The position numbers and the translations under genes were made by a program. Positions 1,851 through 52,417 of a stretch of 64,000 bases of DNA are shown piece after piece; within the stretch, counting starts at the first letter, position 1; each line of letters starts with the position of its first letter. Source of the stretch: Chamaelirium japonicum (taxonomy: Eukaryota > Streptophyta > Magnoliopsida > Liliales > Melanthiaceae); NCBI GenBank assembly GCA_947650365.1, contig OX393549.1, forward strand, positions 37,076,598-37,140,597. Reading direction: 5' to 3'. Under the pieces are notes generated by a model, which saw nothing but the letters and a program-made list of their open reading frames with translations, did no database searches and was not told the DNA's origin.

Positions 1851-1997
1851 TTACTGGAGACATTGGATGCCGTGCTTGATGTCGGGGGCATGTATGATCC
1901 TAGCCATGACCGTTATGATCATCACCAGAAAGGCTTTAACCAGGTTTTCGGGCATGGGTTCAACACCAAGCTAAGTAGCGCTGGACTTGTCTATAAG
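1851..1997 (+). CDS. MYG1: MYG1 exon 2 (DHH motif exon)
   Basis: The exon is preceded by a pyrimidine-rich acceptor ending TTTTCAG and followed by GTAGCA. It encodes 49 residues in phase 0, including LDAVLDVGGMYDP and RYDHHQKGF. The D-H-H of YDHHQ (codons 1917-1925) is the signature metal-binding DHH motif of this phosphoesterase superfamily. The family sequence continues directly in the exon at 2896. An open frame upstream from 1740 is intronic. The preceding exon, expected to encode the conserved THNG-FHCDE stretch, is not in the window; copia DNA occupies 1-1689. Confidence 0.93.
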
Positions 1998-2895
1998 GTA
2001 GCATAATATTTCTATCTACAATAGGGTAACCATATTTAGATGACTCGGTTTAATTATAAGCAGTTTATGTAACTAGCATTAATAAATAATACAAAGGACA
2101 AGCTTTTTTTATTTTTGCAATAAAATGTAATGTGGACTTATCTTTGATTTAGATGAAAGTAAGTGGGATATATCCTTGGTGACATGCAGATTTGCTATGA
2201 TGACAGGCCTCACATCTTTCCATATAGCACTATTTTCTATAAACAATAACCAGTTTATAGTACTATGAATTTAATTATACAAAAGCTGAAAGATACCAGA
2301 ATTTCTTAGTAAGGTGATTGTTGCTGTAAGTTGCTGAGATACAAGTACTAGAATTAAATCGAAACTATTCATACATATAACATCAGAGTTTGAAGATTCG
2401 CACAAACTCATCTCTTGAAACTGAAAAGAGGTGTTTTTTATTTGGACTGATTTGGCCATTTTAATTCCAACTGAAACTTTGGGCCAGCCAAATAATGGTC
2501 ATTTCACATCTCTGTCATTAGACATTTGTGGTCAACTCTTTAAAATTGCAAGCTTTTGCACTTACCATGTGACAATTTGAGTTCTTTAAATGGCCAATAC
2601 AAGAAGAAGATATTGAGTGTGATCTAAAATTAACCGACAAACAGGCATACTCAGATGTAGATGCTGTCAAGAAATTGTTCCTGATCTAATTTTCTTTTAA
2701 CGATATTAACTAGCCGACTGTAATCTTCTGAAATTGAAGGTGGTTGTTTGATCAAAAGCCAATTCTGGAATATAGGTCTTCTTGATTATCGAATATAATC
2801 ATGGAACTAGTGATTGGATGTGTTAAATACTTTGTTATGCAGTCTGTTCCCTATACCGTACAACTGCTGGCTTATGTGGTATTTTCATAGTGTAG
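1998..2895 (+). other. MYG1 intron 2, no gene seen
   Basis: AT-rich intron of 898 bp with GT-AG ends. No repeat structure or coding signal was recognised on either strand. Confidence 0.7.
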
Positions 2896-2994
2896 CATTA
2901 TGGTATAGAGTTAATTGCAAAGGAGCTTCAGCTTGATGAGGGACACGAAGATGTACGTCGTCTATATCTTGCTGTGTATAGAAGCTTTGTCGAG
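2896..2994 (+). CDS. MYG1: MYG1 exon 3
   Basis: Acceptor TGTAG precedes codon CAT; the donor is GAG|GTAGCA. The 33 residues begin HYGIELIAKELQL and end VYRSFVE. This is the family continuation after GLVYK of exon 2, and the next family residues (AIDAVDNG) appear only 32 kb downstream at 35069. Phase 0 at both ends. Confidence 0.9.
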
Positions 2995-3960
2995 GTAGCA
3001 CTTTAACTTACTCCTAAAGTTATGACTGAATTTCTCCAACATATTGTACTTCAAATGGTATTATGCTTTTATTATGCGACTTAAAGCTTGGTCCCTTTTC
3101 TTGCTACTTTTGATTCATATGTTGGTGACTTTGTGTTTATTTCTTTGGTTAACTTAATCAGAATTTAATACTGGAAGTATGAAGGTAATAAAGATTTTAC
3201 AAGCATTTCAGCATGTGTGCAAAGCACACGAACTAACTTTTCGGTAAAGATATTAGTAGTACCACGGGTAGTTCCCATGTGCTGACATAAAGGCCTAACC
3301 TCCTAGAAGCATCAGATATAAGGATCCCCGATAAAGGACAAAACAAGAAAGATGATGCATGGTCATTGTGGGCTGCATAATGGGCTTAGTTGGATCAGAT
3401 TGTAGTTAAACCTTAGCCCGGAAGTCTAGATGAAGTGGCGGAGAGGGGAGTAGTGGTCAAGAAGATCGAGATACTAAGCTGGGATGGATTGATCTTTGGG
3501 AAAGAGAAGTTGTTGCGCCGATCTCTCGTGAAGCCGTAGAAGAATTCATGATGGCGAGGGAGAAACTTGCGAAGAAGAAGAATAAGGTGAAGAGGCTAGT
3601 TGATGGTGGAGGGGAATAGGTTTCCGAGCGACAGTCTCCAAACACTAAGGTTTCAATTCTTCATCAATAGCTCCCTTCTCGGGTTTCATAGGAGTCATTT
3701 ATAAGAGAGAGGAATAGAAGAGACGAAGAGGAGAGGGAAAAGAATGTTAAAGAGAGTCATAGCTAAAAGGGGGAGATCGCACGTCTCCCGAGGCTGTACG
3801 GACGTCGTACGGCCTCCCCCTCGGGTGGCGATTGGCGGATAGGGTTGGATAAACCCCCCCCTCTCTTGATGCGAACTTGGCCCTTTATGGCGACTTACTG
3901 TTGATCCCATCCCTTGGATGGATCATCCAATGGTGTTGTATTCTTTTCATTTATAAACCG
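2995..3960. other. Start of MYG1 intron 3, no gene seen
   Basis: The first 200 bp look like ordinary AT-rich intron. From about 3225 the composition changes (GC-richer, purine-rich), suggesting old transposon DNA, but I find no termini, TSD or coding motif. Confidence 0.5.
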
Positions 3961-4385
3961 TGTTGGGAAAGTAGGGCTAACCCAACTAATAACATGGTAC
4001 GAACAACCTTTGCACCTAGACTTAGTATAAAATAAAAACCTTAATAACTTATAATCCGTAAGTCGGATCGAAATGAAATTAAGCCCAAAATTGTTCAGAA
4101 CTGAAAGAGCAATATAATGATCGAAAAAATTTCACCATCGATCGCATCGAAACTCGTGCATAGCTGAAAGATGAGAAGTCGTGTCGCCATCGATTAAATG
4201 TGCAAAGATGGCTTATATCCCAAAAGATTGAGCCGTATCTAGCCCATAACCGACGCTACAAAAAAGGAAAGGGATAAAGATTGTTTTCTCCCAAAAAAGG
4301 AAGATAAATCTTAACGGTTATGAGGAGAGATATTTAAGGAATTCAAAAATCACACCCATGTCTCTCCCATCCTCCCCCCTTTGCC

Positions 4386-4393
4386 TATAAATA
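4386..4393 (+). promoter_or_regulatory. TATA box of a putative LTR promoter
   Basis: TATAAATA sits 425 bp after a possible LTR start TGTTGGGAAAG (3961) and upstream of the 59-bp repeat array. This is the layout expected if the array is transcribed from an LTR of the outermost element. No matching partner LTR was delimited, so this is an inference. Confidence 0.3.
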
Positions 4394-4766
4394 GAGGGGC
4401 AGGGGGATGGCTTCAAAGGTCGGAAAAATTGAAGACGAAGGATCCGCAAAGAAGGAGGCTCGTTCTCGACGACTCAAGGCTTCACGAGGCACGAGCAAGC
4501 GCATCCCACAGGAATGGCTTAGCCCAAAAAAGTCCTCATCAACGTGAAAACCTTGCACAAGAGATCAAAGCTTCAACTCTGTTCACGAAGAAGAAAGCTC
4601 GAAGAAGAAGACCCGAAGTCGACATTACCCCGTCGTCTTCAACAACCCTTCAACTCTAAAAACACCACAGAAGCCCGAAGAAGAAGATCGAAGCGGCGCC
4701 ACACCCGTCATCTTCAACAAACATCTGCTCAATTGACAAAGAAGAAAGCTTGGAGAAGGATACGCG

Positions 4767-5600
4767 AAGCGGCGATACACCTGTCGTCTTCAACAAAGCC
4801 TTCAAGTTCGATTACGCCAAATACGCTCGGAGAAGAAGCCGATACTACAACCGTCATACCGAGATTGGTACTACACCCGCCATCTTCAACAATAAAGTCA
4901 ATGCTACAACCGTCGTACGGAGATCGGTGCTACAACCACCATCTTCAACAACAAAGCCGACACTACAACCGTCATACGGAGATCGGTGCTACGTCCGCTG
5001 TCTTCAACAACAAAGCCGACGGTACAACCGTCGCACGGAGATCGATGCTATATCCACCATCTTCAACAACAAAGCCAATGTTACAACCGTCGCACGGAGA
5101 TCGGTGGTACGCCCGCCATCTTCAATAACAAAGCCGACGCTACAACCAGCGGATGGAGATCGGTGCTACCAGGGATGGATCTAGGGGGGGCGTGTGGGGG
5201 CGACCCCCCTAGATTCGAAAGAGAACCCTTTATTATAGTAGTATTAGTAAGGATTATTTTAAAATTATATAAGTTCACCCCCCCTAAATTTTTAACAAAA
5301 TTTAAGACCCCGCCCCCCCAAAGATTTTTCTAACATTCACCCCCCCAAGGTTCGATTCTTGGATCCGTCCCTGGGTGCTACACTACTCGTCTTTAATAAC
5401 AAAGCCCATGCTACACCGTCACACGGAGATCGATGCTACACCCACCGTCTTCAATAACAAAGCCGACGCTACAACCGTCGCATGGAGATCGGTGCTACAC
5501 CCGCCATCGTCAAAAGAAGCCTTCAACTCCGATTACGCCAAATAAGCTTGAAGAAGAACAAAACCGGCACTATAACCGCTGCATGGAGATCGATTGATGC
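4767..5600 (+). repeat. 59-bp tandem repeat array 1
   Basis: Successive copies of a unit containing AAAGCCGACGCTACAACCG, then GGAGATCGGTGCTAC, then CTTCAACAA recur with a 59-bp period. Array 1 is interrupted at 5170-5373 by an hAT MITE. Its left entry (TCGATTACGCCAAATACGCTC) and right exit (CCTTCAACTCCGATTACGCC) have counterparts in array 2. Three overlapping plus-strand open frames through the array are a by-product of the repeat and are not annotated as genes. Confidence 0.85.
5170..5373. mobile_element. hAT-type MITE in array 1 (204 bp)
   Basis: The termini are inverted: it begins CAGGGATGGATC and the opposite end reads CAGGGACGGATCC on the minus strand. Identical 8-bp target duplications GGTGCTAC lie at 5162-5169 and 5374-5381; that 8-mer is part of the 59-bp unit. 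8-bp TSDs and CAGGG termini point to a non-autonomous hAT element. The interior is AT-rich flanked by poly-C/poly-G tracts and has no coding capacity. Confidence 0.88.
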
Positions 5601-5970
5601 AGCACGATCAGCATCATCAGATCATCGCCGCATCTTCGGTTCATCGTCGGAGACATTTATTTACCGTCGTTTTATTTTTATGGTTGGAGGGACATTAGTC
5701 GTATGGGACTTCTTAGTCGTTTACTTCAGTTTTTGGCCATTTTCTATGTTTTTGGCCTTATTTCAGCACTTAGTTTTATTTATGTTCTTGCCCAGTTCAT
5801 GGGGGATGTCCATGATCTCATCCGAGGGCTTTTCGGATTGAATCCGGGTCTTCTCGGGTGGGTTTCTGCATGATATTAATAAAATTATGGGTGCGTGTGT
5901 TTGCGGGGTACCTACGGACGAGATTAGATCTCGAAACCGGCGGTTAGATGACAAAATAACTCAAATTAGA

Positions 5971-6994
5971 TGACGTGGCACATATGGGCTTCAACTAGGG
6001 CTTAAGTGGGCTTATCTTAAGCCCAATAGGGCTTCTAATGCATTACCGCCCCCCCTCCTTTCTTTTTCCCGTGAAACCGATCGGCCCTCTCTCCTTGCCG
6101 TGCGGAAACCGAGGCCCCCACCCCCTTGTTCCGTTCCCTCTCTTCTCTCTCTCTTTTCTCCCTTGTTTCTCTCTCTTTTCATTGCCTTTCTTAGCCTTTG
6201 AATCCCCACCATCTGCCCTTATTCCCCTTTGATCCTAGCCATCAAAATAGAAACCCTAACTCTACAAAAAGATGAAGAAAGAAGAAGAAATTCAGACTTT
6301 GATCAATTGCTGAAATTTGTGCCTCTTCGTGAGTGCTTCCGGGCGAGACGCGTGTCCCCGATCTTCGCCGCTTCCACTACTTCGCCTCGTGAAGGCCTCG
6401 GTGTTGATTTTCCGAAGGTTCCGACTTCTCTCGACGTCCGGCCTTGCTCCGTGTGCAGGATCATCGGCGCATCCTTGCAATCGACCCACGGCGGGAAACC
6501 CCAGGCAGTAGGCAGTATCTATCCTTTATCCTATTTCCCTACCGCATCCGCATCGTTTTCCCTTTATTTCCATTGCCTCCGCTCCGCATCGCAGCCATAA
6601 CCGGCCTTTTCATCGCTAATTGAAGCCCTAAAAATATGCCTAGTCATCTGATTTGTTATCTTTAGTCTGTCGGTCACCTTTGCAAGCATCCGTAGCCTTT
6701 TTTTTTCTTTTATAAAATCTGATGCAAATATGCCTTTAACTTTCAATATTTACTGCTGCGATTTAATCTATTATTTGCTGAAATCCGTTTTGTGATAACC
6801 TTGCATCTTATTTGTTTAAGTCTTAAATTTGCTATATGTTGATTGCATGGACTTTCTAGTACTACCTGAGATAATTAATGTTGCTGTCCTTTTGAGTCTT
6901 ACGTAGCTATATTGATCATTAAATCATAGTTTTTGACCAAAGAGAAACCCTAAAGGGTTCAAGATTGTAGTGCACCTTATCAGTGCCTGCATCA
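5971..6994 (+). repeat. LTR of a Ty3/gypsy element (left boundary tentative)
   Basis: The right end ...CCTGCATCA precedes AG and the PBS at 6998. The proposed left end TGACGTGGCACATATGGGC resembles the TGATGTGAGCC start of the LTR of the non-autonomous element at 12240-14950, which also ends TGCATCA next to the same PBS. The left TSD cannot be tested because the 3' end of the element is missing. Confidence 0.5.
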
Positions 6995-6997
6995 AGT

Positions 6998-7009
6998 TGG
7001 TATCAGAGC
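6998..7009 (+). other. Primer binding site, initiator tRNA-Met type
   Basis: TGGTATCAGAGC matches exactly the complement of the 3' end of plant initiator tRNA-Met. It lies 155 bp upstream of the gag ATG. Confidence 0.85.
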
Positions 7010-7163
7010 TCGAAAGAACCTGTTCGGGTTTCTTTTGAGTGCTGAATTTCAGCAACTCTCATCGTCTTCTTTGATGAATTTTCATAGGGCATAATCTTGC
7101 GTGCTTGAAATTGCATCTAGTGTTAGGACTGCATCGTGTGAACATCTGCATACCTCATAACCC

Positions 7164-8975
7164 ATGGCTGATCGTACCCATCTGCACCGGGATGCCCGGA
7201 ATCGAGGACGTTTTCCTCGAGGACCACAACCTCGTGGTGCTTGGCAAGAAGCGACCCAAAATACGTTGGATCGACATGCAACCTTGTTGCAAGAGATCAC
7301 CGATAGGCTGGGATTACTATTACAAGATAGAGGCGTCAACCCTAATACCCGACCGGTCGAAGAGGACCTGGAAGGGGCAGAGGCCAATCCACGTGCCGAG
7401 GGTCATAGGGTCGAAGAGCAAGAACGGGACCAGGGCGTAAATCAAAATCCGATTCCAAACCCACCTCGGAACCAGAACCAAGCCCTACCTCAGAATCACA
7501 ACCGATACCAGCCGAACGAGCGAAATCGAGCTGACTATCTTGAGTCGCCCCCTGAGTCTGAAGCTGAGTTGGACGAGTCCGACGTGGACTTTGAACGAGA
7601 GTACGTTCAGTTCGGTCGTCCCCGAAACCCTAGAGAGCAGCATGCGCGTGATCAGCACGGCATGGAGGAACGTCTTGTGCGAGCCCTTGAGAGATCCCAA
7701 GGATACGGAGTCCGAGTTGACATCGATGACTTTAGGGGAAGCCATGATGCTGATGCATTCCTTGACTGGATAGATAGCGTCGAGCACTTCTTTGATTGGA
7801 GAGATCTCCCCGACGATCAAAAAGTCAAACTCGTGGCAATGAAATTGAAAGGAGCCGCTTTAGTTTGGTGGCGAGAGTTGCAAACAAGTCGCCTTAGGAA
7901 AGGGAAGCAAAAGGTCGCAACGTGGGCCAAAATGCGTGACAAGATGCGACTGAAGTACCTCCCTCCTGACTACCGTACCTCTCTGTACCAGAGGTTGCTT
8001 AGCCTGAAACAAGGCAATCGAAGCGTACAGGAGTACACTGAAGAGTTTGACATCCTGACCACTCGGAATGCCATCCCGGAAGACGATGAACAGAAAGCTG
8101 CACGCTACGTCTCGGGGTTGCGTTACCAAATTCAGGATGCGCTAGCAATGCAGACCATCCTCACTGTGACGGAAGCATCTAGGCAAGCTCTCAAGGCTGA
8201 GAAGATTCAACAACGGGCCTTTAGGAGAGAAGTTGCCCCTCGAGTACCCCCAGGTGCCCCTTCAGCAGGAAGAGGAGTACCTCCTACTAGAGTCACCCCA
8301 CCTGTTCCCACTCCGACTACCACTCCATCAAGAACCAGTCAACCCCTTGGTCGGGTTGAACAGTCAAGTCGTGAGCGAGGTGCTACAGGAAGTCGACCAC
8401 CCGGAGCGACTTACAAATGCTTCGAGTGCGGAGAAGTAGGACACCTCATCGCCCAATGCCCAAAAAGGAGACCTCAGACCCATCTGACAGAAAGTGGAGA
8501 GCCAACTGAGGAAACCCTGAATAACATGGCTGAAGAAGGGCATGATGATGATGATCCTAGAGATGCTGAATATCAGGAGGATGACGAGACACATGACGTC
8601 ATCGCTGAAGCTGACGAGGCAACGCATGCACTAGTCATGCACCGTGTTTTATCGACACCCAAAGCTCCTGAACCAGATCGATGGCTTAGAAGGAACATCT
8701 TCCACACCACTTGTACCTCAAAGGGGAGGCATTGCGTCCTCATCATAGACAGTGGTAGTACCGAGAACTTGGTCGTACAGATCATGGTTGACAAATTAGG
8801 GCTCAAGGCAGAGAAGCTGGTCAAGCCATACATCTTGTCTTGGTTTAAGAAAGGATCAGATGTCGCTATTAAAGAGCGATGCCTAGTTGAATACACCATT
8901 GGCAAGATGTATAAGGAAGCTGTTTGGTGTGACGTGGCGCCCTTGGGCATTTGTTTGAAGGGGATAATAGACTAG
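7164..8975 (+). CDS. Ty3/gypsy Gag-protease polyprotein, truncated
   Basis: The open frame of 603 codons begins at an ATG just after the PBS leader. Residues about 190-350 form the retrotransposon gag domain (motifs VWWRELQ, YRTSLYQRLLSLKQG, VQEYTEEFDIL). A zinc knuckle CFECGEVGHLIAQC starts at residue 419. The retropepsin motif LIIDSGSTENLV has its catalytic Asp at residue 529. Gag packages the RNA and the protease matures the polyprotein. The frame ends shortly after WCDVAPLGIC, exactly where gypsy proteases normally continue into the conserved LLGRPW segment. Reverse transcriptase, RNase H and integrase are absent because unrelated DNA joins at about 8955-8975. Confidence 0.85.
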   Translation: MADRTHLHRDARNRGRFPRGPQPRGAWQEATQNTLDRHATLLQEITDRLGLLLQDRGVNPNTRPVEEDLEGAEANPRAEGHRVEEQERDQGVNQNPIPNPPRNQNQALPQNHNRYQPNERNRADYLESPPESEAELDESDVDFEREYVQFGRPRNPREQHARDQHGMEERLVRALERSQGYGVRVDIDDFRGSHDADAFLDWIDSVEHFFDWRDLPDDQKVKLVAMKLKGAALVWWRELQTSRLRKGKQKVATWAKMRDKMRLKYLPPDYRTSLYQRLLSLKQGNRSVQEYTEEFDILTTRNAIPEDDEQKAARYVSGLRYQIQDALAMQTILTVTEASRQALKAEKIQQRAFRREVAPRVPPGAPSAGRGVPPTRVTPPVPTPTTTPSRTSQPLGRVEQSSRERGATGSRPPGATYKCFECGEVGHLIAQCPKRRPQTHLTESGEPTEETLNNMAEEGHDDDDPRDAEYQEDDETHDVIAEADEATHALVMHRVLSTPKAPEPDRWLRRNIFHTTCTSKGRHCVLIIDSGSTENLVVQIMVDKLGLKAEKLVKPYILSWFKKGSDVAIKERCLVEYTIGKMYKEAVWCDVAPLGICLKGIID

Positions 8976-9287
8976 ACACACATACGCCTACACCGAGACG
9001 TATGTGCCGAGCTTTCCCACGAGAGCGTAAGTTGATGCGAGATAGTAAATACAGAGAATTTAAAGAACGAGTGTACCAGGGAGAAGCGGTTCTTTATTTA
9101 GGCAAGCGCGTCGTACTCCTTCGCAATCAACGATCTACTGCTCTTCCAATATTCAGATCTTTTTTAATTTTTAATTTTTTTTTTACCTGAACAGAAAGAA
9201 AAGAAGTACTTAGTATATTGAATGCAAAGAGAAAGCAAAGACTAAAAAGAAAAACGTGGATGCAAAGTTCCTATTCGTCCGTTGCAA
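8976..9287 (-). other. 5' leader of a reverse-oriented LTR element
   Basis: This is non-coding DNA downstream (minus sense) of the tRNA-Asp PBS at 9288-9305. It is U-rich in the minus sense, as leaders of Athila/Tat-type gypsy elements often are. It abuts the truncated gag-protease frame, so one element was cut by, or recombined with, the other. Confidence 0.45.
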
Positions 9288-9305
9288 TCCCCGGCAACGG
9301 CGCCA
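9288..9305 (-). other. Primer binding site, tRNA-Asp type
   Basis: The minus strand reads TGGCGCCGTTGCCGGGGA, the complement of the 3' end of tRNA-Asp and typical of Athila-like Ty3/gypsy elements. Confidence 0.85.
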
Positions 9306-9311
9306 AAAACT

Positions 9312-11827
9312 TGCTACAACTTTAAGTAGTCCTAATTAAGGGTCTAAAAAGTGCAATTTAACCCCAAGTATAGGGTGTGTAGCGAAGTAGTAATCTCGGT
9401 GAGTCCGAGGTCGATTCCACAGGGACTGAAGGACTAATGGGAACTAATATGATGACAGTGCGTGAACGTGAGTGCAAATCAGGGTTTTCCACTGAGAGTG
9501 GAGCACGAGGGAATGAAACTACGTTACTAAATTAAATAGAACTAAATATTGCAATTAATTAAAGGAGGTTACGATGGAGATGATGCTAAGGCATCCGGGT
9601 TCAACCTAGTAGTATCTTATGCATTCATCATGATCAATAATTCGTACGAGGATAGCATCAAAATAGGTTCTAGCATGCATGCTACAGAGGTTATTAAGCA
9701 TTGCATATGCCCGGAGTCGATATGTAATCAAAACAACTTATACACATGTGCTGATTTCTAGAGATATATGCATCCATCATAGATACTTATATAGATTGAA
9801 AATTATGTGATGAGAGACTCGTGAAGTTCGTGTCATCATGCCACAGGGATTCGCAAGCATTACGTATGCCCGAAGTCAATACGGAATCAAACAAATTTGC
9901 AAGCAAGATGCCATACATCTTAGAATAGTGTCATCCAACATAAGAGTCAACCATAGGAAACTTAAAACTTCATTACTGATCAAAAGAGAAGCATAATAAC
10001 CACTAGGCATCCCCCATAGCCTTAGCTAGGGGTTTAGGCGTGCATGTTCATAGAATTCAATATAAAAGCATAAGTGCAAGCAAACTCCATTAATGGCAAT
10101 ACGAAGGATGATGAGCGTAGACGACGGCTTCCGGCGAGGATGACGACGTGCGACGATGGTGCTTGGCGTCGATGACGATGTGCTTCGAGATGGGCTTCCA
10201 CGGCAAGGACGATGGTGTGCGGCGTGACTTCGGGATGATGAAGACGGGTTTCAAGCTTGGCGAATGGAAGATGATGGATCCGAGGTGGAAGACGATGATA
10301 TGACGTAGGTTTGGTCGAATGAAGTTCGGGCTTAGATGGTGGAAGATGTTCCGGGCGGTTGGCAATGAGGATCGTTGGATGATGTTCGGGTTTAGATGGT
10401 GGTCCAAAAGTCCGGGTGGTGGTTATCGTTTGATGAAAGTCGTGCTCTCTGGTGTGTCCCCCCCCTTTTGGTTCGTCCCTCTCTTCTTTTTATAGGATAT
10501 AGAGGATAGATAGAGAGAGCTCAGCCGGGGTTACGTGCATGGGTTCGTAAAGAGGGAGAGTGAAAGAAGATCGGGCGGTTAGGTCGCATGGACGGCTGTG
10601 ATTGATGAGTTGGAGACGGGCTGCGGATTAGGCAAGGAGAGAGAGAGAGATGATCGGGTAGAGAGAGGGTTTCGGGATGAGAGAAGTTCGCGGGTTCGGA
10701 AGAGAGTTGAGTCCTGGTTTGTAGGAGAGAGAGACGATCGCAAGAGAGATCTAGAGAGAGAAAAGAGGAGATGAGGTCGGGTACAACCTAGCCGGACACG
10801 AGAGAAGAGAGAGATTCAGTTAGAGAGAGATAAGGAAAGAGAGAGAGAGAGTAGGGTTTTAGAGAGAGAAAAACCAGGGAGCTGGGCATTCGGTAATGGA
10901 ATGGACGGCTGTGATCTCGGGGCAGCTGGGTATCGGATGAGAGAGAGTCGCCACCTTTTTAGGAGGAGAGAGAGTTGTGCGGACTAGAGAGAGAAAGGGA
11001 GAGCTGGGCGTTTGGGTCGGTTTAGAGAGAGAAACTGAGACGGGAGAAGAGAGGCTGGGCTTGGTCGGGTGCATGCACGGGACGGTTGTGATAAAGTCAC
11101 ATGCATGCAGCTGGAGTTGGTTGGCCACATGCATGGATTTGCATATGTTGAGGGGTTCGGATGTAATGAATGGTTGTGATTTCGTTTTGAAGAGAAAGGG
11201 AATAGGATAGATAATAGGAGATATGGAAAGGGACAGCTGTGATAGCTTGCAAGGGACACTTGTGATCAAGTTTTCCAAGAAGGGGTGCATGCATGGGTCG
11301 AATACTTGGATGTGCATAGGTGTTTTGGCTTTGCATGAATAGCAAGACCATCGGATGGTTGTTATGAGTTTGTGAAGGTGGAGATCGTGTAGAATAGGAA
11401 ACGATGGAGAGTGCGATCAATAGAGGAGTTGCACATGCATGGGTGTATGGGTTGGTGCACGGATGGCTGCGATGGGTGAAGGGTGTAATGGATGGTTAAG
11501 ATTGGGTAATAAAGAGATGAGAGAGAAAGGGTAAAAGAAAAGGAAACGATATGCTTCGGTAACCATTCGAGCCATCCAAACTCGTCAACTCTTCCATGTC
11601 AGGCCCTTTGCATATGCGTAGTTCTTTAGTGGTCCGAAGCTAGCGATGTGTTGCCGGTGATGTTATCTCGACCAATTTTGCACAACCATCATTCTCTGCA
11701 TCATTCTTCATAAGGGCCTCCAAACGAGCTGTGCATGCTGCATTGAATCGCCGTGAGAATATCCACCGTACTGTCATGATGTCCTTTATCCGACTATGTC
11801 AAGTACCGGGTCAATTCCCTGAAAATC
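9312..11827 (-). repeat. LTR of Athila-like gypsy element (outer boundary uncertain)
   Basis: The inner end TGCTACAAC lies just outside the tRNA-Asp PBS. The stretch CGAGGTCGATTCCACAGGGA (about 9407-9426) is typical of the R-U5 part of these LTRs. A GA-rich region (10500-11060) and runs of CATGCA follow. The outer terminus is tentatively placed at ...AATCACACA, but it may extend to about 12100. No partner LTR, pol gene or TSD is present, so this is a truncated element. Confidence 0.5.
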
Positions 11828-12234
11828 ACACATGAAATGACGCGTGTAAGGTTACGGTGCAACTATCGATAAAAATATTAATTTGGACTATCAGGCTCCG
11901 TATTTTTCATGCATGTATTGTATGAATGCAAACTAATATACCGTTATGTCTGTATTAAAATCTACTATGCAGTGGTGCAAAGAAAATAATACGCTTTACG
12001 AGTATATGAAAAGTTTTACATAGGAAAGCGACGATAATGCAGTAAGAAATAAATGATAAAATGCATTATTTGGAGACTTAACAGCCATCCGAGCAGCCGC
12101 AAAGAAGGTCCCAAGGCGGATCACATCCCCGTTTCAGGGTAGGACGAAGCGACTAAGAAAAAGCACCAACCCTGTTGACCGGTAGACAGCTCACCAAATG
12201 ATGCTACCTCCCTCCAGTCCCAGTACCTCCCAGG
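11828..12234. other. Unassigned DNA left of the GATGC insertion
   Basis: No gene recognised. A minus-strand open frame ending at 12121 continues across the insertion point of the 12240-14950 element. The DNA resumes at 14956, so it belongs to the same interrupted segment as 14956-15870. Confidence 0.4.
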
Positions 12235-12239
12235 GATGC

Positions 12240-12723: not shown

Positions 12724-13189
12724 TTTGCTTCCGCTGCGAAGAACTCGCCCTCGAGTTCATACGGTAAAGCGTAATCATCCTCAAAGTTTTTGCTGATGTG
12801 GTATCTGTCGTCAGGAGCTGATGGTGGAGGCCCAACAAATGATGTCTCACTACACCGAAGTCACCACCGGGGTCCCATGAGAAGGTATCACTGCTGTCGA
12901 TCGGGAAACACACATCAAAGCGATGCTGGGGTAGACGACCGAGTCGGATAGTAATATCAGACCGCTGCAGTAGCTCGAACATCGGCTTGCCTGAACGGAG
13001 GTAGAACTGAACAAACACTGTAGGCACCAATAGTCGGTCTAGCCCAAGAAAATCAATCTGCTGAGGCTCGGCTAGGGAGACCACATCAAAAGAATCCGCA
13101 GTAGGTGGTAGCATGACAGGTGTCGGAAGATCCTTTGTAAGAGGGGGCTCGTCTGCTGGTTGTGGTACTGGAGTTGATGGATCTACCAA

Positions 13190-14950: not shown

Positions 14951-14955
14951 GATGC

Positions 14956-42560: not shown

Positions 42561-42716
42561 TTTTAATGCTGCCATTATTTTAAAACTCGCCAAATGGACT
42601 CAAACCTTAGTTGAATCGACTCGACTCTGCTGGGGACTCACCCATCTACTCAGCCCGGTAACAAGTTGGTCCAAATCTTGGTCGACTCAATCCAAAACTC
42701 GCCTAATTTATATTTT

Positions 42717-43087
42717 TGACCCAGCAAATTTTGACCCAGCAAATAACCCAGCACCCTTTGATGCATCTAGAGGTTTTAGAATGGGCTGATTTTTTGTACA
42801 CATGTTGTCTATGGTGTATTGATCATCCTCACAAAAAATCAGCTCATTCTAAAACCTCTAGGTGGATCAAATGCGCTCTTCAAGTCAACGGTTAAAATTG
42901 ACAGTCAAAAACCGTTGATTTGAAGAACGCATTTGATGCACCTAGAGGTTTTAGAATGGGCTGATTTTTTGTGAGGATGATCAACATATCATAGACAACA
43001 TGTCTACAAAAAATCAGCCCATTCTAAAACCTCTAGGTGCATCAAAGGGCGTTGGGTTATTGTTGTGTCAAAATTTGCTAGGTCAGC
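42717..43087. repeat. Foldback (palindromic) element 1, about 177-bp arms
   Basis: Arms 42717-42893 and 42910-43087 are near-perfect inverted copies separated by 16 bp. Each arm is itself partly palindromic: AGGTTTTAGAATGGGCTGAT and its complement recur four times in all. It could form a very long hairpin RNA or cruciform. It has no coding capacity and probably is a MITE-class foldback. Confidence 0.85.
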
Positions 43088-43097
43088 CGATCCTGAC

Positions 43098-43216
<119 letters not shown>

Positions 43217-43548
43217 AATGTTGCAGTGAGTTGTGAGCTGCGGTTTTAGAAAGTGAGCTGCGGGTATTTTCAATGCCCTAGAAGTTTTGGAATTTGATGA
43301 AATTTGGTGAGGGTGTTGTCTAGGGTTAGATGATCATCCTCACCAATTTAACGGTGACTGCGGACAGCAGATTTTGCTTCGACCATTTGACCCCTCTAGA
43401 AGTTTTGGAATTTGATGAAAATTGGTGTGGATGATCATCTTACCCTAGACAACACTCTCACCAAATTTCATCAAATTCCAAAACTGCTAGGGGGGTCAAA
43501 ATACGCGCAGCTCATTTTCTCCTACCGCAGCTCACAGCTCAACGTAAC
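43217..43548. repeat. Foldback element 2, about 120-bp arms
   Basis: Arm 43217-43344 pairs with 43434-43548: GAGCTGCGG...AGTTTTGGAATTTGATGAAA and its inverted complement. The middle holds an extra partial copy of the same sequence. Element 2 has (AT)n on its left and (CT)n(AT)n on its right. Confidence 0.85.
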
Positions 43549-43552
43549 AGCC

Positions 43553-43622
<70 letters not shown>
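43553..43622. repeat. (CT)n(AT)n compound microsatellite
   Basis: CT repeats 43553-43576 run into AT repeats 43577-43622, directly right of foldback element 2. Confidence 0.97.
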
Positions 43623-43625
<3 letters not shown>

Positions 43626-43739
43626 TTACATATTATATACACCAAGTTTTAGGTCACTACTCAGTAGAGTTTTGACCTAGTGTACTCAACTCGGCAAGTT
43701 TTCAAGTCGAGCTGAATTTTTGGTTTTAAACACTAGTTG

Positions 43740-44674
43740 CTAGTTGCTACTTTGTCAATATCCATTTTTCTAATTGCTAATAAAAAGTCTGCAAATGCAT
43801 GTGGTGTTGTGAGTTGTGACAATGACCTTTAGGTGACAACAAAAAGGGATCAAGATTTATATCGAGAACCCATTGAATGGTACAAAGGCTGGTTGAGGAA
43901 TGTATAATCCTATAGACATCAGGAAAGAAAAACAGCCTGGTATTCCTCTCTAGTGCGATCATGCTTGCATATCTAGTGCTACGGAGATCCTCATGATTCA
44001 AGGTATATAGTTGATGCTTTAGAACAGCATAAAACAAGCCTTATAGCACAACTCTGCAAGAAGCGTCCATTGTAGGATTAAATGAGCAAAACTTTTTATG
44101 ATAAAATGACCATCAAATGTCAAACTCTCGTGCAATGTGCCTATAATCCCGCTATATGTAATTTGACAAGGGGTTAATGAGAGAAGGGGTGTAATCATGA
44201 CGATGACGTTGACACATACTAGCGGTGTTTAAAGTTGAAGTAAAATTAAGATCCTGTGGTTACACAACTTTTGGTGTAATTATTCTCTTTACCCAACATC
44301 ACAATATCAGTAAAAATTTTAACTACTTAATATCATGCCTCATGATCCTTCTTCGCAATAAATTTAAGCCTTCTCAATCTTTGTCTCCACCTTTTTTCAT
44401 GTAATTTGAAGTCCAACTCTCCTCCTTTCCCGTTATATTTGAACCAGTGATCTCAGTGGTCTATTCTCTGGTTTTCTTTGCATGTGCTAGTACTATTCCA
44501 AGTTCCAACTAAGTTTCATAACCTTATTCTCCACTGGTACAACCTTTAGGCTTTAGTTTTCTCATTTCAGACTGTATCCTTTCTAGTTTATCACAATCTC
44601 GCCTTCTCATATTCAACCTTCACTCGTGTACTTTCTGACATTCTGATCCACAACATATCTGTGCTGGCAATAAT
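43740..44674. other. Intron 5 filler, no gene seen
   Basis: AT-rich; nothing recognised between the foldback cluster and copia C. Confidence 0.5.
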
Positions 44675-44679
44675 CTTAT

Positions 44680-44805
44680 TGTTAGGAGATGCTAGGGTTT
44701 GGAGAGGAATAGAATGCATTCTATTGAGGGACTCAAGCCCAATATATGTACATGTATCCGACCCGACTGTACAGTAAACCCGACCCATCTGTATGTACAT
44801 TAACA
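44680..44805 (-). repeat. 3' LTR of copia C
   Basis: 126 bp with TG...CA ends; it has GAGATGCTAGGG where other copies read GAGATGACGGCTAGGG. Confidence 0.94.
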
Positions 44806-44818
44806 CTCCCCCTCAAAC

Positions 44819-47800
44819 TCACGGTGGATCATGAACCGAGAGTTTGCCTAGAAAATGCCGGAAGCGAGCAATCGTCAGGGACTTCGTCAGAAAATCAGCA
44901 GTCTGCTCCGATGAAGAAATGAAAGGCAGGGAGATGGTGTGGTCGATAAACGCCTGGCGAACATAATAACAATCAACTTCAATATGTTTTGTTCGCTCAT
45001 GGAAGACCGGATTGCTAGCAATCTGAATAGCACTCCGGTTGTCACAGAAGAGAGGAGTGGGCCCGGATATCACCACTCCCAAGTCAAGCAGAAGACGGCG
45101 AAGCCAGACAATCTCGGCGGTGGTGGAAGCCATGGCTCTGTATTCGGCTTCGGTGCTGGAGCGAGCAACAGACTCCTGCTTCTTGCTGCGCCACGAAATC
45201 AGTGAGTCACCTAGAAACACACAGTATCCTGTAGTAGATCGACGAGTGGCTGCATCTCCTGCCCAATCTGCATCGGAGTAGGCACGCAGCACCAACGGAG
45301 AGGTGGAGGGAAACAGTAGTGAACGGGTGATGGTGCCTCGGAGGTAGCGGATAATCCGAAGAACCGCTGCATAGTGTACTGACCGTGGAGCCTGAACAAA
45401 CTGATTGACAATGCCAACAGCATGGGCAATGTCTGGCCGGGTCATGGTGAGATAGACAAGCATCCCAACCAGCCTCTGGTAGCGGGAGACATCCTGGAGC
45501 GGCTCACCATCTGTAGCGAGAAGCTTCAAATTGAGCTCCATGGGTGTATCAGCAGTGCGTGTGTCAGTAATAGCAGCATCAGCAAGGATGTCGGAGATGT
45601 ACTTCTGTTGGGAGACTAACAGACCACGAGCTGACCGGGCAATCTCAAGCCCAAAAAGTAGCGAAGAGAGCCCAGATCTTTCATCTCAAACTGACTCTGG
45701 AGGTGCCGCTGAAGAGAGGCGATGGTGGCACTGTCATCCCCAGTGATGATCATATCATCCACATAGAGGAGAAGAACTGCAATGCCCTGACTGGAGGAGC
45801 GAGTGAACAAGGCATAGTTGGAGTGACGCTCAACAAACCCGGCGGCCAGAACTGCACTGCGAAATCGCTCAAACCAGGCACGCGGGGCCTGCTTGAGCCC
45901 ATAGATGGCTCGGTGCAACCGACACACGTGCCCTGGAGGAACTGAAGTGCCCGGAGGAGGAGCCATGTAGACTTACTCGGAGAGATCACCGTGGAGAAAC
46001 GCATTGGTGACATCCATCTGATGGAGAGGCCACCCTCGAGCAGCTGCCACAGCTAAGAGGGTGCGCACAGTAGTCATCTGAGAGACTGGAGCAAACGTCT
46101 CCTCTTAGTCAATCCCATACTCCTGGGAGAAGCCACGAGCAACGAGACGAGCCTTGTGCCGCTCAATTGATCCGTCAGGTCGAGTCTTGACCTTGAATAT
46201 CCACTTGCAGCTAACAGGCACCACCCCGGAGGGACAAGGCACCAACTCCCAGGTCCTGGTCCGCTGAAAAGCCTCAAGCTCAACTGACATGGCATGCCGC
46301 CACTCTGGATGTAACGCTGCCTCACGGTACGATTGGGGCTCCCGATGGGTGTGTATAGCAGTAAGAAAAGCCTGAAAGGATGGTGAATAGGAGACACTGG
46401 CAGAGTAGCCAGAAGAGTCAAGAGAGTCAGAGGGAAAAACAGAGTAGCCAAACCTGTCAGGAGAGTAGTCATATCTGGCAGGAGGGTGATGTTCGCGCGC
46501 TGGGTAGCGCCGAACAGGAGCAGGATCCACGACCGGGGAGGGAGGGAGCAGCAGCATCAGGCGAGAGGGTACCAGCGGGAACCGTCTCTGGAGGAGGAGC
46601 TGCAGACCGATGAACATAGACACGAGTAACAGGTGGTGGTGGAGGTGGCGAGGGAGACGGAGGGGGTGGTGGTGGTGGTGGTGGTGGTAGAGGTGGCGGG
46701 GAAGATGGAGTGGGCGTGGATGGGGCAATAGAAACCGGGGGTAGAACATGGATGTGGAGATGGGAGGAAGACGAGGAGGATGACGCAGGAGGCAAGGAAA
46801 GATCCTGAGACTCAGGTGAAAAATACGGGACATCCTCAACAAAGGAGACGTGACGGGAGACACGGATCCGACGAGCCAAGGGATCGTAGCAGCGATACCC
46901 TTGGTGCTCCCGATTGAGCCCCAAGTGAACACACCTAACAGACCTCGCAGAGAGTTTGGTGCGCTCATGGGGAGGAAGAAGAACGAAGCACGTGCAGCCA
47001 AACGTGCGAAGAAGAGAGTAGTCAGGTGGGCTGGAGTGAAGGCGCTCGTATGGGGTGACCGGACAGAGCAGACGACGGAGTGATATTGATGAGGTGGACA
47101 GCCGTCATGACAGCTTCAGCCCAGTAGGAGTGAGGAACAGACGCAGAGAGGAACAAGGCTCGTGCAGTCTCAAGTACATGACGATGCTTGCGTTCGGCAA
47201 CGCCGTTCTGCTCATGGGTGTGGGGATAGGACTGCTGGTGAAGAGTGCCGTGAGACTGAAGAATCTCACGCATCTCAGAGGAGAGATACTCCTTGGCACA
47301 ATCAGACCGAAAGGTCTTGATGCGCCGACCAAACTGAGTGTGGATCATAGTGGTAAATTTTCTAAAGATGTGAGGTACTTCAGATCGATGACGCATAAGA
47401 TAGACCCAGGTGCACCTAGAATAGTCATCGATAAAACACACATAATACATATAACCCGATGGAGATGCAACAGGAGCAGGACCCCAAATGTCCGAATGGA
47501 CTAAATCAAATAAAGCATCAGACTGGGAAGTACTAGCAGAAAATGGAAGAGCTAGATGCTTTACCAGTCTACAACCCGTACAAACAGAGAGGGAGGAGAA
47601 AGACGCTCGACCCAAAGCGCCCGAACGGAATACGCTTTTGAGTCGATCACTCGAGATATGACCTAACCTTCTATGCCACAGGTCGGCATCAGAGGTGACA
47701 GACATGACAGACGCAACGGAAGACACATGTAGATGGTCCAACTGGTAAAGCCCTCCTGCCCTACGGCCCATCCCAATCCTCTTACCCGTCCGCGAATCCT

Positions 47801-49213
47801 GCACAACACAAACAGAAGGGGTGAAAGTGACAGTCAGGCCAGAGTCGCAAAGAGAACTGATAGAGATCAGATTAATATTAAGGCGGGGGGCATGATGGAC
47901 ATGGGGTAGGGTCAAGTGACCAGAAGGGTCAGAGGTGGTAGTGATGGAGCCACATTACGGAATAGGGACGAGAGTCCCATCCGCAGTGCGAACCTCCTGG
48001 TGGGTGGTAGTGGGAGAACAGTCCGTGAGGATAGTAGAGTCAAATGTAAGGTGACAGGAGGCACCCGAATCGAAGATCCATGGAGCAGTAGTACCAGAGG
48101 TGGCAGACAAGCCGTGCGCAGTCGCGGAGCCGGTGGAGGCTAGGTGGCGAAGAAGGAGCTCCTCGAGGCGCTGAAGACGGTCCGGCTCAGGCGGAGAAGG
48201 CGCTGTAGTAGCAGTGGGGAGCGTCGAGGCCTCTACAGTTGCCGCTGTACCACCAAAGTGGCGGAAGGAAGACGAACCACGTCCACGGCTCCGTCCACCT
48301 CGACCGCCGCGTCGATCGTCGCGGGAAGTCGAAGCCCAGCGTGGAGCTCTCTCATCCGGACCCCAGTGGGGGTTGCGTGGAGGACGTGTAGGGCATTCAC
48401 GCTTCATGTGGCCGGGCTCCTTGCAGTAGTGACAGAAGACAGCCTCATCGGAGAACCCGGCTGCCAGGACAGTGTCGGAGCTAGGAGCAAGTGGAGGAGG
48501 ACGAGCGCCCTGAGTCTGAAGGCGGGTCTCCTCGTCGACCAAGGCAGTAGAGCATCCTCTAGCCGAGGGAGTGGCTCACGGTGCAGGAGCTGGGCAGCTA
48601 TGAGAGCAAAGTCCGGTCGAAGCGCTGCCAGGAACTGGTGCAGGTGGCCCTCGTCAAGGTAGCGCTGGAAATCCCGGGAGCGGGGGCAGGCATACCGCTC
48701 CGGGATCAGTGAGTCTAGCTCATGCTAGTAGGCACTCATCTGACTGAAGAAGTCCTGAATGGTGCGCTCCCCCTAACGGGTAGACTGCGAGTCACGGATG
48801 AGCTGATGCCGGCGTGCGCCTCCGCGCGGGAGAAAACGGTCCCGGAGATACTCCCACATCGCGCGCGCTGTCGGAAGGCGGCCGATGGGAGCAAGGAGCG
48901 GACGAGCAACAGAGTCCAGAAGGTACGCCCAAATGGCCTGATCGTGGCGGCGCCACGTAAGAGCAGCAACGGTGGTGGCCGTGGTAGCAGTCGCAGCAGA
49001 AGACGCTGCACTGCTGGTGACAGAGGAGGAACCGGAGTAGTTAGTGGGAGGAGGATCCTCGCCGGTGATATGACCCCACAGATCACGACTGGAGAGCGTG
49101 GCCTCGACGGTGAGGGACCAGTCAGGCCAGTCGCTGGCCGATGTCAACTGAAAGGCGACCGCCTTCAGCGGTGGAGAGATCGCAACGACGGACGGTACGG
49201 CTGGAGAAGCCAT
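44819..49213 (-). pseudogene. Copia C Gag-Pol, multiply broken
   Basis: ATG at 49213; the final stop is before 44819. Stops compared with copia B: TAG 48773-48775, TAG 48725-48727 (Trp in B), TAA 47955-47957, TAA 46105-46107, TAA 45973-45975. Indels: 1-bp loss near 48545, 2-bp loss near 47060, 1-bp gain near 46540, 1-bp loss near 45649. Domains are otherwise in order: zinc knuckle CHYCKEPGHMKREC, protease PWIFDSGASCH, integrase HHCC and FIDDYSR, RT YVDD, RNase H with TEAEYRAM. The codon that is TGA in copy B is TGG here (RDLWGHI). No functional protein is expected. Confidence 0.93.
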
Positions 49214-49680
49214 GGAGGAGGCTCAATAGAGGGAGGGGGAGCCGGGAAGGGGTGGGAGGGTCGGTCGGAGGAAAGAGGGAGGGTCGGGGTGGAGGAAGGG
49301 GGCTGTAGGGGGTGTCGGGGGCTGTAGGGCTGAAGTAGGGCGTGGAGGAAGGTGGTTGGGGGCGGTAGGTGGGCGGAGGAGGGGGGTCGGGGGGTCGGGA
49401 GGGTGTCGGGGGGGGGGTGGGGGGCTGTAGGGGGGTCGGAAGGTTGTAGGGGGGGTCGGGAGGGTGTCGGGGGGGCTGTAGGGGGGTCGAAGCGCTGCAG
49501 GGGAGCAGTCGGGGGCTGTAGGGGGGCGGGAGGGTGTCGGTGGGGCTGTAGGGGGGTCGGGAGGCTGTAGGGGGGCCGGGAGGGTGTCGGGCGGCGGGAA
49601 GGGGGGGCCGGTGGAGGAGAGGGGCCGGATGGGGTGAGCCGGTGGAGGAGGGAGGCCGGACGGGGAGGTGCAGCCGAAGG
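49214..49680 (-). repeat. C-rich leader minisatellite of copia C
   Basis: GGGGCTGTAGGGGGGTCGGG-type units, as in copy B but with a different number and arrangement, so the leader array expands and contracts between copies. Confidence 0.8.
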
Positions 49681-49705
49681 AGGAGGTCCGTCGTCGTCGG
49701 GAGAA

Positions 49706-49724
49706 CCCTAGAGCTCTGATACCA
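49706..49724 (-). other. Primer binding site of copia C
   Basis: The minus strand reads TGGTATCAGAGCTCTAGGG, a better initiator tRNA-Met match than copy B; it abuts the LTR directly. Confidence 0.9.
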
Positions 49725-49854
49725 TGTTAGGAGATGACGGCTAGGGTTTGGAGAGGAATAGAATGCATTCCATTGAGGGACTCAAGCCCAATATATGTAC
49801 ATGTATCCGACCCGACTGTACAGTAAACCCGACCCATCTGTATGTACATTAACA
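49725..49854 (-). repeat. 5' LTR of copia C
   Basis: 130 bp; identical in appearance to the left LTR of copia B. Confidence 0.95.
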
Positions 49855-49859
49855 CTTAT

Positions 49860-50724
49860 TAAATTGTCGTTAAAGAGACTTAGGTTGAGACTATCACGTA
49901 GCACTGCAGTACCAACCACTTCCACCAGCATGCCCTAATGTTTTTGGATGTTTCTTGATTTGTTTGTCCATCACTTTATATACATATAGGTCCATTGTTA
50001 TGAAAAGTCGCACCAAATTACTTTATCCATCAATAGGCCATGTGCCTCATGTAAGGCTTTCCCCCCATAGTTCCATTCAGTATATTTTATTTTGTTATAA
50101 TAACTTCTATAACTGCATCCTGTAAAATGTTCCTCAATAATTCTAGCTTGATGCTGTTCTTGTTTAGGAATGGCAACAGGACAGGTTTTCTGGGTTACCC
50201 GACCCTTTAGGTTGGGTTCAGGATTGGCTCTAATGGGTTTGGAAATTTTCAACAACAAAAAAAAAAACGCTCAGATCTGAGTCGGAGTCGGGTTTAGCCC
50301 ATCGCCTCCACCTGATTATACACACAACCATAACTTTGTAACCCATACTCATCCCTAACCCACATACTTATCACAAGCTCACTTTACAATTTGCTTTATC
50401 GAAGACTCACTTTACACTTCACTTTCATTATTTATATTTTTCAGGAGAAATAGTAGCTATTGATGTTTTTTTTTTTGGTTAAAATGCATATCTCAAATCC
50501 GCCCTGCCCCACTTCGATGTGTTCCACCAAGCACAATCGAGTTGGGGCGGGGCAAGTTCGGGTTTTTGATAATACAAGTGGGACGATTTTGGGATTTACA
50601 CATCAAACCAAAGGCAGGGACGGATTTGGGGTGGGGTATTCCTTAATTTATGAACCCTTTGATGGCCATACACCATGGTAGTTCTAGCCATAACCACATA
50701 TGCATCATGATACTTCCTGTGGAT

Positions 50725-50798
<74 letters not shown>

Positions 50799-51311
50799 CC
50801 AGCACATTTAAAACCTCTACAAAGAGATCGTGGCTCTCTGAGATCTCTGATCCAACTCCATAGCTATAGGACATTCTTCACTCAAGTCAGAAGTCATTTG
50901 TACACTTGTTTCTTTGTACCCATGTATTCATGTAACTATCTCTATATAATGTTGTGAGAAATCCTTTTCCCTTTCAAAGAACACCAAATAAGTTCCTTCT
51001 ACCCTATTGTGCACATTCTCCAAGGTTATAACGATGTATGTATGTTCTTTTCTTCCTAAACATTTCAACAAAGTACTTTCTAGTTTCTACCATTCTCTCC
51101 CATAATTTCAGGGTTAGCTTGTAAGTTTGATTTGGGGATACTGTGTGCAATGGCTGGCTCTCTGTAATATCTCCCACAAAATATTTCATCTTAGCTTAAG
51201 ATTGGCTTGAGGACTTATATATTGTTGCATCACTGGAGCATGCAACAAGTTGATTTCACATAGCGGATCAATTGTCGGAGGATATGATTCAACTCATGGT
51301 ACTGAAGGGCA
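49860..51311. other. Intron 5 filler, no gene seen
   Basis: AT-rich; contains the microsatellite at 50728-50796 and a GGGTTT/ACCCGA-containing stretch (50180-50300) like a decayed MITE. No coding motif. Confidence 0.5.
50728..50796. repeat. (AT)n microsatellite, 69 bp
   Basis: Uninterrupted AT dinucleotides in MYG1 intron 5. Confidence 0.98.
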
Positions 51312-51319
51312 ATTTAAAT

Positions 51320-51504
51320 CAGTGTTCAAAACCTCGAAACTCGGACTCGACTCAAAATTCAGCTGAGTCAAGTAAACTCGGTCTGACTCAGCCGAGTTTT
51401 ATCCCAACTCATTCCTACTCGACCCAATAACTCGACTCGAAATCTTGCTGAGTCGAGTCAACTCGGTCCGACTCGGCCGAGTTTTACCGAGTTTTAAAAC
51501 AGTG
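51320..51504. mobile_element. hAT-type MITE (185 bp) in MYG1 intron 5
   Basis: It starts CAGTGTTCAAAACCTCG and ends CGAGTTTTAAAACAGTG, with identical 8-bp duplications ATTTAAAT (51312-51319, 51505-51512). The interior is full of ACTCGACTCG and GCTGAGTCGAG. A related but disrupted ACTCGACT-rich sequence surrounds the foldback cluster at 42590-43735. Confidence 0.9.
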
Positions 51505-51752
51505 ATTTAAATAAATAAAGAAATTAATTCACAAAGATGTAGCAGTAATAGCAGTAGTAGTAAAATGTAGATGAGCAGTTAATTCTAATAATAAGATAGT
51601 TTTTGAATATTGCCTTGGGATTTTACTGAAGGCAAAACTTACTTTCTTCCCCTTGGCTATGATATCGATGATTCATGAATCACTATTTATCGGCTTTATC
51701 GTTGTGATGAGTTTACAAATTACAACAGTCTAATATAACTATGTTGTCACAG

Positions 51753-51824
51753 TGGAAGCTTCATTTGTTTGAGCTTGAAGAGGAGTTGAAGATTGATCCT
51801 CCTATTAAGTATGTTGTTTATCAG
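51753..51824 (+). CDS. MYG1: MYG1 exon 6
   Basis: Acceptor TTGTCACAG, donor CAG|GTATGG. The 24 codons begin WKLHLFELEEELKI and end KYVVYQ, continuing directly from GFCP of exon 5 in the family order. The exon is separated from exon 5 by a 16.2-kb intron containing copia C. Confidence 0.9.
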
Positions 51825-52180
51825 GTATGGCCATGAATGTGCTTCATTAAGACCGAACAGTTTACTATAGAAGATTTAAGGAAAATGTACTATTTACCCC
51901 GAGGCACTTACCGATTCATTCACACATAATGACGTGTCACGATCATAGCCATCCGTTTCACCTAGCTCTGACCAGTGAATCACACTCAACTTGGAGCGAC
52001 AGCCAAAGGGACGCTTGGATGCCATGTCATTCTGTGTAAACGAATCGGTAAAAGATATCGGTATGAATAGCATTTCTCAAGATTTAATTAGCACTTCAAT
52101 TTCTGAAGTAATGATTGTACGTATATAGGGGTTAGTTTGTAAAAAACCCTTCCTAATTATTTATGGTCTTGTAATCCTAG

Positions 52181-52417
52181 GATGTTAGGAGCAGAAGGTG
52201 GCGAGTTCAAGCGGTGGCAATATCCCCAGATAACTTCGAAAGCCGAAGGCCTCTTCCTCTGCCTTGGAGAGGCTTGAGTGATGATGAACTCTCGAAGGAA
52301 TCTGGTATCCCTGGTTGCATATTCGTTCACATGAGTGGATTCATTGGCGGAAATCAAACCTATGTTGGAGCCCTAGCCATGGCACGAGCTGCTCTCGAAT
52401 ACCACGCGGATAGCTGA
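52181..52417 (+). CDS. MYG1: MYG1 last exon with stop codon
   Basis: Acceptor AATCCTAG. It has 78 codons plus TGA. It contains WRVQAVAISPDNFESRRPLP, then a C-terminal segment with IPGCIFVHMSGFIGGNQTY and MARAALEYHADS at the end. The VHMSGFIGGN stretch is the conserved C-terminal motif of MYG1 proteins. No AATAAA is obvious downstream; the 3' UTR probably ends within about 100 bp. Confidence 0.93.
   Translation, partial: DVRSRRWRVQAVAISPDNFESRRPLPLPWRGLSDDELSKESGIPGCIFVHMSGFIGGNQTYVGALAMARAALEYHADS

What the first reader, a model, noticed from the sequence alone, without database searches (positions are those of the whole stretch)
1851..52417. MYG1 gene expanded to more than 50 kb by two giant introns
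Seen: six phase-0 exons totalling 867 bp are spread over 50.6 kb, with introns of 32,074 bp and 16,206 bp made mostly of LTR elements, a DNA transposon, MITEs and LINE pieces. Established: MYG1 is a conserved single-domain DHH phosphoesterase. Inference: the gene stays functional and must splice across these introns. All introns fall between codons, so skipping the 72-bp or 99-bp exon would keep the frame.
Basis: partly seen in the sequence, partly recalled or inferred. Interest (0 to 1): 0.75.

Follow-up and report, generated by a model that had tools for sequence, protein, structure and literature searches.

The report
Plant MYG1 gene with transposon-filled introns
A conserved plant gene of the MYG1 family is spread over more than 52,000 bases because jumping genes piled up inside its introns, a real but already familiar pattern in plant genomes.

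Summary
Six exons (867 bp) at exactly the stated places join, with GT-AG introns between codons, into an unbroken MYG1 protein (PF03690, E 3.8e-111), 83-85% identical to palm and banana MYG1. Corrections: (1) the gene does not begin at 1851; some 83-91 N-terminal residues lie beyond the window's left edge, so six exons and 50.6 kb are lower bounds, and the intron before 1851 holds another copia element. (2) 'Mostly mobile elements' was shown for the 32-kb intron (64% identified), not for the 16-kb one (40%). (3) All five exons with an intron on both sides keep the frame if skipped, not only two. New: each giant intron holds a young copia element of one family, same direction, different target-site duplications, so separate insertions, on either side of exons 3-4. 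The protein looks constrained, but with unusually many changes at conserved sites for its family. Transcription, splicing and a second MYG1 copy were not tested: there are no RNA data, and the genome search did not complete in nine tries. Long LTR-filled introns are a known kind.

The parts
1..1689 (-). Ty1/copia element U, cut by the window edge: gag ORF in 1-1113 and LTR about 1153-1689; lies in the intron upstream of the first visible exon
   Evidence: Pfam Retrotran_gag_2 E 9.5e-36, Pol_BBD, zinc knuckle; LTR limits TG...CA read by eye
1851..1997 (+). MYG1 first exon visible in the window (49 codons, holds RYDHHQ); not the gene's first exon
2896..2994 (+). MYG1 exon 2 of those visible (33 codons)
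2995..35068 (+). Giant intron, 32,074 bp, GT-AG, between codons
   Evidence: 63.5% identified as mobile or repeat sequence
7161..8975 (+). Ty3-type gag ORF (604 codons stop to stop)
   Evidence: Retrotrans_gag E 2.9e-19, Ty3_capsid E 8.9e-11; extent
12240..14950 (.). LTR element D, 2,711 bp, target-site duplication GATGC, no coding domain found in the two ORFs scanned
   Evidence: LTRs equal at 474 of 484 aligned bases, 5 gap columns; duplication; Pfam
16716..25398 (-). Copia element A, target-site duplication AACAA, split by a hAT transposon, lying inside a 59-bp repeat tract
19028..22652 (+). hAT transposon inside element A, 12-bp terminal inverted repeats, 8-bp duplication CGTACACC (register chosen to fit the inverted repeats; one search shows three possible registers)
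   Evidence: DUF659 E 6.7e-45, Dimer_Tnp_hAT E 7e-12, ends
29411..34687 (-). Copia element B, 5,277 bp, duplication GTTTT, one open ORF of 1,346 codons
   Evidence: RVT_2 E 9.3e-70; LTRs equal at 130 of 130 aligned bases, 3 gap columns; duplication
35069..35260 (+). MYG1 exon 3 of those visible (64 codons)
35427..35546 (+). MYG1 exon 4 of those visible (40 codons)
35547..51752 (+). Giant intron, 16,206 bp, GT-AG, between codons
   Evidence: 40.0% identified as mobile or repeat sequence
40412..40834 (-). Reverse-transcriptase fragment, probably of a LINE (the Pfam family alone does not prove that)
   Evidence: RVT_1 E 4e-13
42717..43639 (.). Two fold-back (self-complementary) repeats with AT runs between and beside them
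   Evidence: self-comparison, 89.5% and 77.5%; sequence
44680..49854 (-). Copia element C, same family and direction as B, duplication CTTAT, reading frame in several pieces
   Evidence: 96.6% equal to B over 5,006 columns; duplication; LTRs equal at 125 of 126 aligned bases, 6 gap columns; ORFs
51753..51824 (+). MYG1 exon 5 of those visible (24 codons)
52181..52417 (+). MYG1 last coding exon (78 codons and stop)

Best explanation
This is the 3' part of an ordinary nuclear MYG1 (UPF0160) gene of a monocot, whose introns were enlarged by layered transposon insertions: a block with a Ty3-type gag and 59-bp repeats, later entered by copia A (itself entered by a hAT) and LTR element D; a very recent copia B in the same intron; and copia C in another. 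Introns grew because insertion inside an intron leaves the splice sites intact, so selection against it is weak. The pre-mRNA is most likely spliced normally across 32 and 16 kb, probably with the intronic elements methylated and masked by the plant IBM2/ASI1 pathway. Shown: the exon-intron anatomy, protein identity, the elements and their duplications. Inferred: order of the oldest events, transcription, splicing, methylation, enzyme activity, and that this is the working copy.
For: Open 288-codon product with GT-AG junctions between codons; PF03690; 83-85% identity to palms and bananas; a tree of 52 relatives plus this row puts it among monocots, weakly beside banana and gingers (87/70); 46 differences from the consensus of 120 homologues, against 36-54 in 25 monocot rows; terminal-branch changes avoid conserved columns, 7 of 28 against 13.8 expected, P 0.008; duplications at the ends of A, B, C, D and the hAT.
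Against: No RNA evidence, and the N-terminal exon was not seen. End branch 0.15, twice the median of 0.076. Its share of changes at conserved columns (0.25) is the highest of the 22 longest of 53 terminal branches (Canna second row 0.23, Ananas second row 0.20). Only 7 of 120 homologues reach 7 departures from conserved residues, and only 3 of 120 reach its 9 private residues (two of the 9 in thinly filled end columns). Some private changes are not conservative (183 R>G, 212 E>V, 243 R>S, 272 E>V). So some relaxation is possible. All four copia elements found lie antisense, which might look like selection, but four cases prove nothing and rice showed no orientation bias (PMC7145194, passages).
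Confidence: 0.82

Rival explanations
1. A recently silenced or spare duplicate: the insertions have shut the gene down or found it already dispensable, and another MYG1 copy does the work.
For: Raised change at conserved sites and private residues; two MYG1 proteins are listed for Dendrobium nobile, Phalaenopsis equestris and Canna indica; copia B is very young.
Against: No stop or broken splice site in 867 bp; terminal-branch changes still avoid conserved columns; the exon after the giant introns does not stand out: exon 6 has 13 differences from consensus, against 8-19 in 25 monocot rows.
Confidence: 0.13
2. Assembly artefact: unrelated transposon sequence was joined between the exons.
For: Repeat-rich sequence can be misassembled; no read support was available here.
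Against: Five elements (A, B, C, D and the hAT) have matching duplications on both sides; the window has no N; exon order and strand follow the protein exactly.
Confidence: 0.04
3. Shortened isoforms ending inside the giant introns, or separately transcribed pieces, are a main product. (Not exclusive of the best explanation, so the odds add to more than 1.)
For: In the Arabidopsis ibm2 mutant, transcripts of genes with heterochromatic introns end early (PMC7145194, passages). In Chloranthus expression fell for introns above 40 kb (PMC8626473, passages).
Against: Both giant introns cut through the PF03690 domain; no relative among 120 lacks a stretch of 5 or more residues (biased set); no inverted match between the two giant introns that might favour exon circles.
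Confidence: 0.06

Closest known systems
LTR-filled long introns of Chloranthus, magnoliids and gymnosperms
   Same: Introns expanded largely by LTR elements with the coding part unchanged; in Chloranthus spicatus 876 of 2,184 orthologues exceed 20 kb, against 2 in rice (PMC8626473, passages); introns above 20 kb are numerous in gymnosperms (PMC9364684, passages)
   Different: This plant is a monocot by protein tree; one gene only, no genome-wide measure
Genes with heterochromatic introns in rice, regulated by OsIBM2
   Same: Transposon-bearing introns inside genes; over 10% of rice genes (PMC7145194, abstract and passages)
   Different: Methylation, histone marks and IBM2 dependence not testable here; introns here far exceed the rice average of 372 bp among orthologues given in PMC8626473 (passages)
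Oil palm DEFICIENS and the Karma transposon (mantled)
   Same: Monocot gene whose splicing depends on methylation of a transposon (PMC7472560, passages); that Karma is a LINE in an intron is recalled
   Different: That case has a reported splicing effect; here none is shown
MYG1/UPF0160 exonuclease family
   Same: Model positions 40-318 of 318, RYDHHQ present
   Different: The N-terminal motif and leader seen in relatives lie outside the window

Membership tests
MYG1 exonuclease (PF03690) | Match to the Pfam model above its cut-off | tested here: met
   372.1 bits against cut-off 22.1, model positions 40-318 of 318
MYG1 exonuclease (PF03690) | DHH motif (defining role recalled) | tested here: met
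   RYDHHQKGF in exon 1851-1997
MYG1 exonuclease (PF03690) | N-terminal motif HNGSFHCDEALG of relatives (metal-binding role recalled) | tested here: inconclusive
   Not in the window; expected upstream of position 1
MYG1 exonuclease (PF03690) | 3'-5' RNA exonuclease activity | not testable with these tools
   Reported for Myg1 (review PMC9181182, passages)
Gene with transposon-expanded introns | Transposons with target-site duplications inside introns bounded by intact splice sites | tested here: met
Gene with transposon-expanded introns | Same introns short in relatives | not tested
   No plant genomic DNA of relatives was examined
IBM2/ASI1-regulated heterochromatic-intron gene | Heterochromatic marks in the intron; 3' transcript lost in ibm2 | not testable with these tools
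   No methylation or expression data

The most novel reading that the evidence does not exclude
Exons 3-4 sit between two nearly identical, same-direction copia copies 15.27 kb apart (96.6% over 5,006 columns), one of them with LTRs equal at all 130 aligned bases and an open polyprotein frame. The locus may be structurally unstable within the species: recombination between the copies would remove both exons without shifting the frame (104 codons), and copia B may be absent from some individuals, giving a natural test of how a 5-kb step in intron length alters splicing of a conserved gene.
Probability: 0.2. Interest if true: 0.45.

Novelty: new member of a known kind. Interest (0 to 1): 0.22.

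Why it matters
It is a clean, well-delimited example of intron growth by nested transposons in a conserved small gene (relatives of about 370 residues; here over more than 52 kb), useful as a test locus for how plants splice across recent large insertions. It does not change what is known about MYG1 or about intron evolution.

Tried and rejected
Looked for the missing N-terminal exon in the window. In the full-length tblastn tables of four relatives no N-terminal match is better than E 0.98. A second search with the first 85 residues gave E 0.09 at best in what was shown; that output was cut, so the P0002 table and part of P0009's were not seen.

Rejected B and C being one duplicated block: their target-site duplications differ (GTTTT, CTTAT).

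Looked for host genes nested in the introns or downstream: 30 ORFs were scanned against Pfam (10 each) out of 84 frames of 110 or more codons. Apart from transposon domains (DUF659 counted as one because the hAT dimerisation domain follows it) only two matches below their cut-offs turned up, at 58518-59030 (FAM27 and DUF3915). Unscanned frames and multi-exon genes could have been missed. No Rfam family at gathering score and no tRNA.

Tried to name the species through MYG1 and the copia ORF: no near-identical entry among the best 120 of either list (best MYG1 identity 85%; best copia match 81% over 38% of the query). The plant remains an unnamed monocot.

Papers: six searches were answered, several with capped listings; by title none of the listed papers is about plant MYG1 gene structure, which is not proof that none exists. 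The original papers on Karma and on human Myg1 are not held. Of the papers cited, I saw abstract and passages or passages only.

Full report
Observation. Joined, they give 867 bp, 288 codons and a stop; all five introns begin GT, end AG and fall between codons. The product matches PF03690 at E 3.8e-111, from model position 40 to the end. It matches solved chains named MYG1 exonuclease (8 distinct sequences, best E 3.2e-83; the call does not name the organism, human by recall). It is 83-85% identical to the palm and banana proteins at the top of the list. tblastn with four full-length relatives recovers the six exons in order; the 24-residue exon alone is weak (E 0.012-0.26), all other matches have E 0.7 or worse.

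What was missed. The first visible exon follows an acceptor site and starts at residue 84-92 of the four relatives. The N-terminal part, with their HNGSFHCDEALG motif, must therefore lie upstream of base 1. The intron before 1851 is at least 1,850 bp and holds a copia element (gag in 1-1113, LTR about 1153-1689). The gene is thus longer than 52.4 kb with at least seven exons, unless its 5' part is lost.

Contents of the giant introns. First (2995-35068): a Ty3-type gag ORF on the sense strand; tracts of a 59-bp repeat; LTR element D, duplication GATGC; copia A, duplication AACAA, split by a 3.6-kb hAT with 12-bp inverted ends and an 8-bp duplication; copia B, duplication GTTTT. Second (35547-51752): a reverse-transcriptase fragment, probably LINE; two fold-back repeats; copia C, duplication CTTAT. 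Identified bases: 20,381 of 32,074 and 6,480 of 16,206, from a list of intervals that I chose; they are minima. A stretch at about 26,258-26,995 looks by eye like a small element with complementary ends, but no 7- or 8-bp target duplication was found there.

Age and relation of insertions. LTR pairs, bases equal of bases aligned: B 130 of 130 (3 gap columns), C 125 of 126 (6), D 474 of 484 (5), A 107 of 115 (64). B keeps one open ORF of 1,346 codons; C's frame is in pieces. B and C are 96.6% alike over 5,006 columns, inserted separately, and lie in the same direction on either side of exons 3-4. No inverted match between the two giant introns was found at E 1e-3. All four copia elements found are antisense to the gene; the Ty3-type gag and the hAT are sense.

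Is the gene alive? For: intact frame and splice sites; total divergence within the monocot range (46 differences from consensus; 36-54 in 25 monocot rows); 7 of 28 terminal-branch changes in conserved columns, 13.8 expected without constraint, P 0.008 (a cruder count over all 46 differences gives 7 against 24.3, P 1.4e-7, but many of those differences are older than this branch). Against: the share of 0.25 is the highest among the 22 longest of 53 terminal branches; 7 departures from 150 conserved columns (8 of 151, where one column is filled by only 3 rows) are reached by only 7 of 120 homologues, whose median is 2, and 9 private residues by only 3 of 120; the end branch is twice the median. 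Part of this is expected for a row without close relatives in the set. The test treats columns as independent and uses parsimony on one tree with weak deep support; the homologues are the best 120 of 3,321, which makes the set look more conserved than the family is. A recent loss of function cannot be excluded.

Mechanism. Most likely the transposons entered existing introns and were tolerated because the splice sites survived; the transcript is spliced normally, with the elements kept silent. Long introns rich in LTR elements are well described: in Chloranthus 876 of 2,184 orthologues exceed 20 kb, and expression fell only above intron lengths of 40 kb (PMC8626473, passages); gymnosperms have numerous introns above 20 kb (PMC9364684, passages); over 10% of rice genes carry intronic heterochromatin, and OsIBM2 takes part in their transcription (PMC7145194, abstract and passages). 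IBM2/ASI1 control at this locus is a reasonable guess, untested.

Verdict. A true, correctly placed observation of a known kind. Its main value is as a test locus with a very recent insertion and a pair of direct copia copies around two in-frame exons.

Noticed in passing
29411-34687 and 44680-49854: Two copies of one copia family in the same direction flank MYG1 exons 3-4; recombination between them would delete 104 codons in frame.
   Followed up: partly
4764-5592, 15899-16715, 25399-25647: Tracts of a degenerate 59-bp tandem repeat, one of them split by copia A; their parent element was not defined.
   Followed up: partly
12240-14950: LTR element of 2.7 kb with a 5-bp duplication and LTRs about 98% alike; no recognised coding domain in the two ORFs scanned.
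   Followed up: partly
42717-43639: Two fold-back repeats separated and followed by long AT runs.
   Followed up: no
9240-9450: A sequence resembling the primer-binding region of an Athila-type element, antisense to the gag ORF nearby (motif recalled, not tested).
   Followed up: no
52418-64000: No Pfam match above cut-off downstream of MYG1 in 7 of the 9 frames of 110 or more codons listed there.
   Followed up: partly
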